DNA from: an uncultured Gaiellaceae bacterium | Lineage (GTDB): Bacteria > Actinomycetota > Thermoleophilia > Gaiellales > Gaiellaceae | Reading direction: 5' to 3' | Assembly (NCBI GenBank): GCA_955652075.1 | Contig: CATPAS010000034.1 | Location: 1 to 16,943, forward strand | Length of the DNA: 16,943 nucleotides | Shown here: positions 15,675 through 16,899 of the stretch, piece after piece | Position numbering within the stretch: the stretch's first letter is position 1 | Layout of the letters: each line of letters begins with the position of its first letter | Notes under the pieces: model-generated | What the model saw: the letters and a program-made list of their open reading frames with translations, nothing else | Told to the model about the DNA's origin: nothing | Database searches by the model: none | Position numbers and translations under genes: made by a program

Positions 15675-15691
15675 GTTCAAGACGATCTAGG
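15675..15691 (+). repeat. 17-bp exact repeat, copy 2 (hydrolase 3' end)
   Basis: Identical to 12879-12895. Here it spans the stop of the minus-strand hydrolase; its CTAG gives a stop on both strands. Read on the plus strand, the frame before its TAG gives CYRSFKTI, resembling the PaaD end QPFEQFKTI. Confidence 0.7.
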
Positions 15692-16556
15692 TCGGCGAGG
15701 GTGCCGCCCGTTCGGGCGCCTCGGCAGACTGTGCAGCGCCTGCTCGCGCATGCTCCGTCGCCCAGTTGAGCGCGTAGTCCGCGACTTCCTCCCACCCGTC
15801 CTGGCCCGGCCAGTGCGACCGGCCGAGGTACTCCTTGTGAGCGGTGGCCGAGGGAGCCTTCCGCTGTTGCTTGAAGTTCGACTCGTTCACCGACGGCGGA
15901 CAGATCCGATCCACGGTCCCGGTGACCAGAAGCAGCGGCGCGCGCTCGGGGTTCTTGTAATTGACCTTGGTTGCGGCATTCGGATTGAAGTTCGCAAACC
16001 CGGCCTGGAAGAAGGGTCGCGCGCTTCCCGGGATGTAATAGCGCTGGTAGACGGAGTCCGATTCCTCCCTGGTGAGCGCGTTCGTGAAGCACCAGTGGAA
16101 CTGCTTCGGAGTCAGTGGCGTCTCCTTCTTCAGATTCGCGGGATTGCCCAGCGCCGGCCAGGCCGACCTCAGCGTCGACAACGGCAGCTTCAGCACGCCC
16201 TTCGGGGCGGCGGTGTTGAGCGCAACGCCTGCCGCGCCCAGCCCGCGGTCGAGCAGGAGCTGTGTGAAGAGACCGCCGAAGGAGTGGCCGATAATGATCG
16301 GCGGCCGGTCGAGCCCACGGATGGCCTTGTCGTAGTTATCGACGACCTCGGTGATGTCGATCCCTCGGAGCGGCGACGGATCGCGGCGCAGCTCCTCCGG
16401 CTCCTTGTCGAGCGCAGGCAGCCACGCGGGCGCGAGCACGCGGTGGCCGCGGTCGGTGTAGTGACTGACCCAGTGCTCCCAGCTGAGCGGATTCATCCAC
16501 ATGCCGTGGATCAGAACGATCGCGGCCTTGGGCTGATCTGAAGCAGTCGAGCTCAT
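15687..16556 (-). CDS. Alpha/beta hydrolase
   Basis: A 289-residue alpha/beta-hydrolase. The oxyanion-hole segment is VLIHGMWMN (14-22), the nucleophile elbow GHSFGG (90-95, Ser92), the acid TGTVDRICPP (212-221, Asp216) and the base GRSHWPGQDGW (245-255, His248). The full triad is present in the usual order. A lid-like region spans about 118-200. The C-terminal tail (Ala/Pro/Glu-rich, 268-289) is low complexity and probably disordered. Substrate unknown; esterase, lipase or haloalkane-type activity are all possible. No signal peptide. A GGGGAGGG ribosome site lies just before the ATG at 16556. The gene is divergent from the selenoprotein gene. Confidence 0.88.
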   Translation of the reverse strand: MSSTASDQPKAAIVLIHGMWMNPLSWEHWVSHYTDRGHRVLAPAWLPALDKEPEELRRDPSPLRGIDITEVVDNYDKAIRGLDRPPIIIGHSFGGLFTQLLLDRGLGAAGVALNTAAPKGVLKLPLSTLRSAWPALGNPANLKKETPLTPKQFHWCFTNALTREESDSVYQRYYIPGSARPFFQAGFANFNPNAATKVNYKNPERAPLLLVTGTVDRICPPSVNESNFKQQRKAPSATAHKEYLGRSHWPGQDGWEEVADYALNWATEHARAGAAQSAEAPERAAPSPT

Positions 16557-16680: not shown

Positions 16681-16899
16681 GTGAAGGTCGAGATCTACTA
16701 CTGCCCAGTCTGAAACGGCTACGACTCCCGGGCCGCGAGTCTCGCGGCCGAGTTGAACGAGAGGACCGCTCACCAGGCCGAGGCCGTCTCTGGCGAGAAG
16801 AGTCAGTTCGACGTCGTCGCCGATGGCAACCTGATCTTCTCGAAGCAGAAGAAAGGACGCTTCCCGGAGCACGACGAGATCATTCGCGCGCTGTCGTGA
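16681..16899 (+). CDS. SelW-like (Rdx family) selenoprotein with in-frame UGA for selenocysteine
   Basis: Reading from the GTG at 16681 through a TGA at 16711-16713 to the TGA at 16897-16899 gives 72 residues. The start is MKVEIYYCPVU, so the TGA falls at position 11 of a Cys8-Pro-Val-U11 motif, exactly where SelW/Rdx proteins have CxxU or CxxC. The rest fits the family: RAASLAAELNER helix (17-28), then FDVVADGNLIFSKQKKGRFP (43-62), matching the conserved F-x-V-x-x-x-G-x-L-h-x-S-K...G-R-F-P block. These small thioredoxin-like-fold proteins are thought to act in thiol redox. A SECIS-like hairpin follows the TGA. Decoding needs selA, selB, selC and selD elsewhere. The alternative, a Cys codon mutated to stop, is less likely given the hairpin and the intact downstream frame. 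Confidence 0.88.
16725..16752 (+). promoter_or_regulatory. Putative bacterial SECIS element
   Basis: GGCCGCG (16731-16737) pairs perfectly with CGCGGCC (16743-16749) around the loop AGUCU. CTC (16725-16727) can also pair with GAG (16750-16752) below a 3-base bulge. The loop G is 25 bases after the UGA, within the 16-37 range described for bacterial SECIS, and G is among the first two loop bases as that model requires. The loop resembles GGUCU of E. coli fdhF. Confidence 0.7.

What the first reader, a model, noticed from the sequence alone, without database searches (positions are those of the whole stretch)
16681..16899. Unannotated SelW-like selenoprotein gene with an in-frame UGA
A complete 72-residue Rdx-family protein appears only if the TGA at 16711-16713 is read as selenocysteine. 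The TGA is exactly at the redox position of the CxxU/CxxC motif, and all family landmarks follow in frame. Standard gene calling would miss it or start it after the TGA. Selenoproteins of this family are uncommon in Actinobacteria, so this may be a new lineage for bacterial SelW.
Basis: partly seen in the sequence, partly recalled or inferred. Interest (0 to 1): 0.9.

Follow-up and report, generated by a model that had tools for sequence, protein, structure and literature searches.

The report
Actinobacterial selenoprotein W gene
A small gene that looks broken by a stop codon is in all likelihood a complete selenocysteine-containing redox protein (bacterial SelW), kept in this form in many uncultured actinobacteria and usually cut short by gene annotation; the protein kind itself is already known.

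Summary
GTG 16681 to stop 16897-16899 encodes 72 residues if TGA 16711-16713 is read as selenocysteine; the product is an Rdx/SelW protein (Pfam E 6e-14; its model matches SelW structures). The Sec reading is strongly supported. The window's genome holds selA, selB and selD. Of 67 matches in 129 genomes of the order, all 66 that span the site have one TGA there; the 67th is a contig-end fragment. A hairpin 24 nt after the TGA keeps its pairing through changes at third codon positions across records of several phyla: 113/113, 109/113 and 98/113 rows, against about 64, 71 and 63 after shuffling. This fits a bacterial SECIS element. tRNA-Sec was not found in the window's 72%-complete genome, but four of nine sister species have it. 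SelW-like selenoproteins are a known bacterial family, so this is an under-annotated lineage (Gaiellaceae, by inference), not a new kind. In the window's genus no formate dehydrogenase alpha was found, and SelD of the window's genome is the cysteine form; other selenoprotein families were not searched. Selenium incorporation and function remain inferred.

The parts
16681..16899 (+). selW-like gene, 72 codons plus stop, GTG start, TGA stop
   Evidence: AlphaFold model mean pLDDT 89 matches SelW/Rdx-type structures
16702..16713 (+). CxxU redox motif (Cys8-Pro-Val-Sec11)
   Evidence: C8 and residue 11 invariant in the 22-row alignment (written with C for U)
16711..16713 (+). UGA codon read as selenocysteine
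   Evidence: TGA in 66 of 66 site-spanning matches in the order, 75 of 76 in the class, 80 of 80 kept loci from genome contigs
16731..16749 (+). SECIS-like hairpin GGCCGCG-AGUCU-CGCGGCC inside the coding region; loop 16738-16742 begins 24 nt after the UGA
   Evidence: third-codon-position covariation and frozen AGT Ser codon; single-sequence fold alone not significant, z -1.41

Best explanation
The feature is a functional SelW-like (Rdx family) selenoprotein gene of an uncultured actinobacterium, probably of the Gaiellaceae. Selenocysteyl-tRNA, made by SelA with selenophosphate from SelD, is carried by SelB; SelB binds the hairpin 24 nt downstream of the UGA and delivers Sec at codon 11 instead of termination. 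The product is a 72-residue thioredoxin-fold protein with a CxxU site that probably works as a small thiol/selenol oxidoreductase. Shown here: the gene, its conservation, the hairpin, and selA, selB and selD in the genome. Inferred: that Sec is actually inserted in this organism, that the hairpin is bound by SelB, that the missing tRNA-Sec gene lies in an assembly gap, and the redox function (substrate unknown).
For: Rdx match across the TGA. 63 of 129 genomes of the order have a relative at E<=1e-5; all 66 site-spanning matches have TGA at the site and none has Cys. In the class 75 of 76 site-spanning matches have it. 80 of 80 kept loci of genome contigs (109 found), including records named Acidobacteria/Vicinamibacterales, Myxococcales/Polyangium, Deltaproteobacteria, Binataceae, Planctomycetota and Anaerolineae, have it too, although the search patterns held Cys, not a stop, at the site. 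Hairpin: the three pairs joining third codon positions pair in 113/113, 109/113 and 98/113 rows against shuffled means 64.1, 70.7 and 63.2. In 47 rows from records not named Actinomycetota they pair in 47, 46 and 35; of six mis-registered third-position pairs, four lie below and two slightly above their shuffled means. Ser in the loop is AGT in 55 of 56 cases in the order, against 4 of 173 Ser codons in twelve window ORFs and 6 of 255 elsewhere in these genes. The loop lies 24 nt from the UGA, inside the published 16-37 nt (PMC10778597, passage). selB, selD and selA over curated cut-offs in the same genome. The 30 best tRNA-Sec loci of the order are all tRNA-SeC with TCA anticodon, four of them in the window's genus. 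The model fits bacterial SelW-related structures (TM 0.72-0.86) and mouse SelW 2npb (TM 0.73).
Against: tRNA-Sec was not found in the window's own genome: the one Rfam hit over cut-off is a tRNA-Ser, and three DNA searches did not find it. selA is in two pieces on contigs C72 and C274. Of 63 SelW-positive genomes, 14 lack a selA match at E<=1e-30 and 12 lack both selA and a tRNA-Sec match of at least 57 bits; most are incomplete, but G031 and G071 are 91% complete. The hairpin of this one sequence is not clearly more stable than shuffles (z -1.41, 20 of 200 at least as good). No Rfam match at gathering score in the window. Inside the order two mis-registered pairs also exceed shuffles. Seven full-length database relatives read L, C, G, W, W, R and G at the site. 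No protein-level data.
Confidence: 0.95

Rival explanations
1. Sequencing or assembly error: the real codon is TGC/TGT/TGG and the protein is an ordinary Cys-type Rdx protein.
For: Seven full-length database relatives carry a sense residue at the site, one of them Cys.
Against: The same TGA recurs in 66 of 66 site-spanning matches in the order and 80 of 80 kept loci of genome contigs. A covarying hairpin has no known role in a Cys gene. The seven sense residues (L, C, G, W, W, R, G) can all be reached from TGA by one base; I read them as errors or mutations that let a gene caller see the gene (inference, their DNA was not inspected).
Confidence: 0.01
2. Pseudogene or premature stop: translation ends at residue 10, or starts after the TGA and gives a product of about 48 residues.
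For: Gene callers annotate the 48-residue form.
Against: The residues before the TGA, including C8, are conserved in frame; the short form would lack the first strand of the fold and the redox motif. A decaying gene would not keep the frame and the synonymous sites of the hairpin.
Confidence: 0.02
3. UGA is read as another amino acid (general UGA reassignment or near-cognate readthrough, e.g. Trp).
For: Two database relatives read W at the site.
Against: This gene and 8 of 12 other window ORFs end at TGA, so UGA is a normal stop. selA, selB and selD are present, and the hairpin is at SECIS distance. Trp could not do CxxU chemistry.
Confidence: 0.01
4. The gene was once a selenoprotein but this species has lost tRNA-Sec, so the gene is dead here.
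For: No tRNA-Sec found in the window's genome.
Against: The genome is 71.6% complete in 392 contigs; selA, selB and selD are retained and the SelW frame is intact. Sister species carry separate tRNA-Sec fragments, and in G029 a phage integrase lies between a fragment and the intact gene, which would favour assembly breaks there.
Confidence: 0.04

Closest known systems
Bacterial SelW-like selenoproteins (Rdx, PF10262; TIGR02174 CXXU_selWTH)
   Same: Rdx fold, CxxU motif, 72 residues, SECIS-like hairpin right after the UGA; over both curated cut-offs
   Different: 54 of 66 members in the order have one extra residue after Sec (U-x-G-Y type instead of U-x-Y or U-G-x), which moves the hairpin 3 nt further from the UGA; only 1 of 76 site-spanning matches in the class is a Cys form
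NF041051 SelTWH_Campy (SelT/SelW/SelH family (seleno)protein)
   Same: Lowest NCBIfam E-value for the window protein, 3e-19; matched by all 22 aligned members
   Different: 69 bits, below its equivalog cut-off of 88: not a member by that test
Mouse SelW (2npb) and bacterial SelW-related structures 2fa8, 2p0g, 2obk, 3dex
   Same: Thioredoxin-like fold, TM 0.72-0.86 to the model
   Different: 19-29% identity; I did not read the redox-site residues of these structures, apart from the two alignments (2ljk and 2p0g), which show Cys at the Sec position
E. coli fdhF SECIS (loop AGGUCU, recalled)
   Same: Short stem-loop after the UGA; loop AGUCU in 83 and GGUCU in 12 of 113 rows
   Different: The E. 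coli side is from memory; no SelB binding was tested and the bulged U of the E. coli element was not sought

Membership tests
Rdx / SelW-like family | Profile match over curated cut-off | tested here: met
   PF10262 52.4 bits vs 22.6; TIGR02174 45.9 vs 34.2
Rdx / SelW-like family | Thioredoxin-like fold with redox motif after strand 1 | tested here: met
   model E2-7, H14-28, E32-37, E43-47, E50-54, then helices; the 23 best Foldseek rows are all SelW/Rdx-type proteins
SelW-like selenoprotein | In-frame UGA at the second position of CxxU, conserved in orthologs | tested here: met
SelW-like selenoprotein | bSECIS hairpin, loop 16-37 nt after UGA, with G in the loop | tested here: met
   24 nt, loop AGUCU; covariation. 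Rule from PMC10778597, conserved G from PMC1088965 and PMC4607533 (passages). bSECISearch itself could not be run
Bacterial Sec-decoding trait in the host | selA, selB, selD | tested here: met
   (selA in two pieces)
Bacterial Sec-decoding trait in the host | selC (tRNA-Sec) | tested here: inconclusive
   not found in the 71.6% complete genome; present in G023, G026, G027, G029 of the same genus
SelW-like selenoprotein | Selenium in the protein | not testable with these tools
   needs mass spectrometry or 75Se labelling
NF041051 SelTWH_Campy equivalog | Score over equivalog cut-off | tested here: not met
   69 vs 88 bits

The most novel reading that the evidence does not exclude
In this genus the whole selenocysteine machinery may be kept for SelW alone: no formate dehydrogenase alpha match at E<=1e-100 in its 10 genomes, SelD is the Cys form in the window's genome, and no Cys form of SelW was seen in the order. 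SelW would then be a Sec-dependent redox protein that cannot easily do without selenium, with one extra residue next to Sec, in a minimal one-selenoprotein system. The evidence does not exclude this, but other selenoprotein families were not searched, and two of the ten genomes (G023, G028) have selA without a detected SelW.
Probability: 0.2. Interest if true: 0.55.

Novelty: new member of a known kind. Interest (0 to 1): 0.4.

Why it matters
It corrects an annotation blind spot in a lineage met here almost only as metagenome-assembled genomes: the gene is missed or annotated as a 48-residue stub without its active site. The set also gives a clear case of a SECIS-like element visible from covariation at synonymous sites in records of several phyla. 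It makes the question of what bacterial SelW does testable in a lineage where Sec appears hard to replace.

Tried and rejected
Single-sequence folding of the hairpin is not significant, so I rely on covariation. Rfam at gathering score found nothing in the window or the three sel contigs. The tRNA-Sec Rfam hit over cut-off in the own genome (51.6 bits) was rejected as tRNA-Ser(TGA) by ARAGORN. Synteny: the gene beside tRNA-Sec in G029 is found in own contig C388, but an unrelated stretch follows and the contig ends 904 bases on without a tRNA; this neither proves nor excludes a gap. The search with the downstream flank of G027 gave only chance-level matches. Own contigs C72 and C274, which hold the two selA pieces, share no exact end overlap, so I do not claim they are adjacent.

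Controls that weaken the covariation inside the order: over all 113 rows two mis-registered third-position pairs also exceed shuffles (86/113 and 83/113), which I attribute to relatedness; in the 47 rows from records not named Actinomycetota they give 28 and 20 of 47 against 22.7 and 18.5. Those 47 rows were chosen by record name (loci L179-L230 without L186 and L194, duplicates removed), not by a tree. One of 114 unique sequences (L231) could not be anchored and was dropped. The co-occurrence of SelW and selA (49 both, 14 SelW only, 29 selA only, 37 neither, of 129; Fisher p 1.3e-4) ignores relatedness and depends on the query: the profile search adds UGA-type Rdx genes in seven further genomes of the order.

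Papers: PMC1794560, PMC2398784, PMC1088965, PMC4607533, PMC10778597, PMC5029168 and PMC9312934 were seen as passages; PMC13188914 and PMC12013277 were searched for my terms, with none found. Other papers were seen as listings with the start of the abstract only.

Full report
What is there. The window is contig C34 (16,943 bases) of a genome of 2.0 Mb in 392 contigs, 71.6% complete. At its right end, 16681-16899 on the + strand, a GTG-started frame of 72 codons is interrupted by one TGA at codon 11. Read with Cys at that codon it matches Pfam Rdx over residues 2-70 (E 6.4e-14) and TIGR02174 over its cut-off. The divergent neighbour is an alpha/beta hydrolase (15687-16556, - strand). Downstream, on contig C300 whose first 141 bases equal the window's last 141, lies a convergent DUF4389 gene. 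A DUF4389-like gene also lies beside the selW gene in 10 of 65 fetched loci of other genomes, and the hydrolase in 2 of 65.

Conservation of the TGA. In 129 genomes of the same order, 63 have a relative at E<=1e-5. Of 67 matches, 66 span the site, and each has one in-frame TGA, at this place when read out; the 67th is the contig-end fragment on C300. A class-wide profile search matches 73 of 399 genomes; of 77 matches one is that fragment, 75 of the other 76 have one TGA, and one (G293) has Cys. Ten of these 76 were not; I read them: nine have CxxU with TGA, and G293 has CTQC. In the named genome collection 109 relatives were found and the best 80 kept; all 80 have CxxU with TGA. The two search patterns there held Cys or lay elsewhere, so they did not favour TGA. 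Record names include Actinomycetota, Thermoleophilia, Gaiella sp., Vicinamibacterales, Polyangium, Minicystis rosea, Binataceae, Deltaproteobacteria, Planctomycetota and Anaerolineae. That the window's family is Gaiellaceae is an inference: G061 of the same family has a contig of the same length (3,282,754) and nearly the same match place as 'Gaiella sp. isolate FR_16', and three database relatives are named 'Rdx family protein [Gaiellaceae bacterium]' (lineage).

The hairpin. RNAalifold on 54 genes of the main group gives an eight-pair stem after the TGA; here it is GGCCGCG-AGUCU-CGCGGCC at 16731-16749. Three of its eight pairs join third codon positions to third codon positions, so they can often change without changing the protein. 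Over 113 anchored sequences (146 in all, 114 unique, one dropped) these three are standard pairs in 113, 109 and 98 rows, against shuffled means of 64.1, 70.7 and 63.2; the innermost is G-C in 77 and C-G in 36. In 47 rows from records not named Actinomycetota the true pairs hold in 47, 46 and 35, while six mis-registered third-position pairs give 6 to 28 of 47: four below their shuffled means and two slightly above (28 against 22.7, 20 against 18.5). The Ser codon in the loop is AGT in 55 of 56 cases in the order (95 of 96 in all 113 rows); AGT is 4 of 173 Ser codons in twelve window ORFs that I took as genes and 6 of 255 elsewhere in these genes. The loop starts 24 nt after the UGA; the published range is 16-37 nt (PMC10778597, passage), and a conserved G in a small apical loop is a described feature (PMC1088965 and PMC4607533, passages). 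Folding of the single sequence is not significant (z -1.41). Shuffles do not keep relatedness, and inside the order two mis-registered pairs also exceed them.

Machinery. The same genome holds selB (C274, 299.8 bits, cut-off 242), selD (C318, 343.6 bits, cut-off 125) and selA (C72, 421.9 bits, cut-off 268, plus a C-terminal piece on C274). tRNA-Sec was not found there: the over-cut-off Rfam hit is a tRNA-Ser. In the order 72 of 129 genomes have a match at E<=1e-9, the weak ones of which may be tRNA-Ser; the 30 best loci were checked and all are tRNA-SeC with TCA anticodon. Four of nine sister species have an intact gene (G023, G026, G027, G029); G022, G024, G025 and G028 have partial matches and G021 none above chance level. 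selA was found in 78 of 129 at E<=1e-30; SelW and selA occur together in 49 genomes and SelW without selA in 14.

Other selenoproteins. Formate dehydrogenase alpha with an in-frame TGA is frequent elsewhere in the order but has no match at E<=1e-100 in the ten genomes of the window's genus. SelD of the window's genome has Cys in SCGGC (that this is the Sec/Cys position is recalled). So SelW is the only selenoprotein found in this genus, but other families were not searched.

Structure and likely function. AlphaFold on the 22-row alignment gives mean pLDDT 89. The 23 best Foldseek rows are SelW/Rdx-type proteins, including MIEN1 and mouse SelW (TM 0.72-0.86). A sequence search of the PDB gives seven of these proteins, not mouse SelW, plus one chance-like match to UvrA (E 0.016). 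The CxxU follows the first strand, as in thioredoxin-like redox sites (recalled). I therefore infer a selenol/thiol oxidoreductase; substrate and partner are unknown.

Annotation. Of 269 database relatives, 120 are listed. Seven are full length, with L, C, G, W, W, R and G at the site. The other 113 are 48-49 residues long; the three I read begin after the TGA. Where a source names them it is mostly as 'predicted Rdx family selenoprotein', 'hypothetical protein' or 'Rdx family protein'.

Novelty. SelW-like was the most abundant Sec family in the GOS marine data (427 selenoproteins, 56 Cys homologs; PMC2398784, passage) and was listed for Symbiobacterium, then under Actinobacteria, in 2006 (PMC1794560, passage). 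That study also noted that SelW-like proteins have very few Cys homologs in Sec-using organisms, which agrees with what I see. Searches for Gaiellales with selenocysteine, Thermoleophil* with selenoprotein, and Actinobacteria with SelW showed no paper on this lineage (open-licence PMC only, judged from listings and passages). I file it as a new member of a known kind, with a small lineage feature: one extra residue after Sec in 54 of 66 members of the order, shifting the hairpin by one codon.

Noticed in passing
L259/L260/L261 (G029:C80), L258/L262 (G026:C35), L252/L263 (G028:C88): Partial copies of tRNA-Sec occur in sister species; in G029 two 3' fragments lie on the same contig as the intact gene, with a phage integrase and a Mu-like portal gene between the nearer fragment and the intact tRNA. 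This looks like prophage integration at selC. In G028 only the first half matches and the rest differs.
   Followed up: partly
L022:4013-4975 (-): An O-methyltransferase gene (Methyltransf_2) overlaps the ends of selA and selB in the sel operon; a relative lies beside selA in 8 of 30 fetched selA loci of the order, and selB beside selA in 27 of 30.
   Followed up: partly
L145-L151, L275-L282: A second Rdx group in the order (CVPU-GALPNA type) also has UGA; in L145-L151 the hairpin loop is GGUCU or AGUCU.
   Followed up: partly
L164 and L178: Records named Burkholderiales and Acidobacteriota carry the Gaiellaceae-type gene on contigs of the same length as those of G093 and G115, which are placed in this order: the bin names are probably wrong.
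   Followed up: no
G036, G037, G054: Formate dehydrogenase alpha without a TGA in genomes where no selA was found. The rule is not strict: G005, G007 and G035 have selA and a TGA-free copy, G069 and G080 have a TGA copy but no selA match, and G036 and G037 have tRNA-Sec matches.
   Followed up: no
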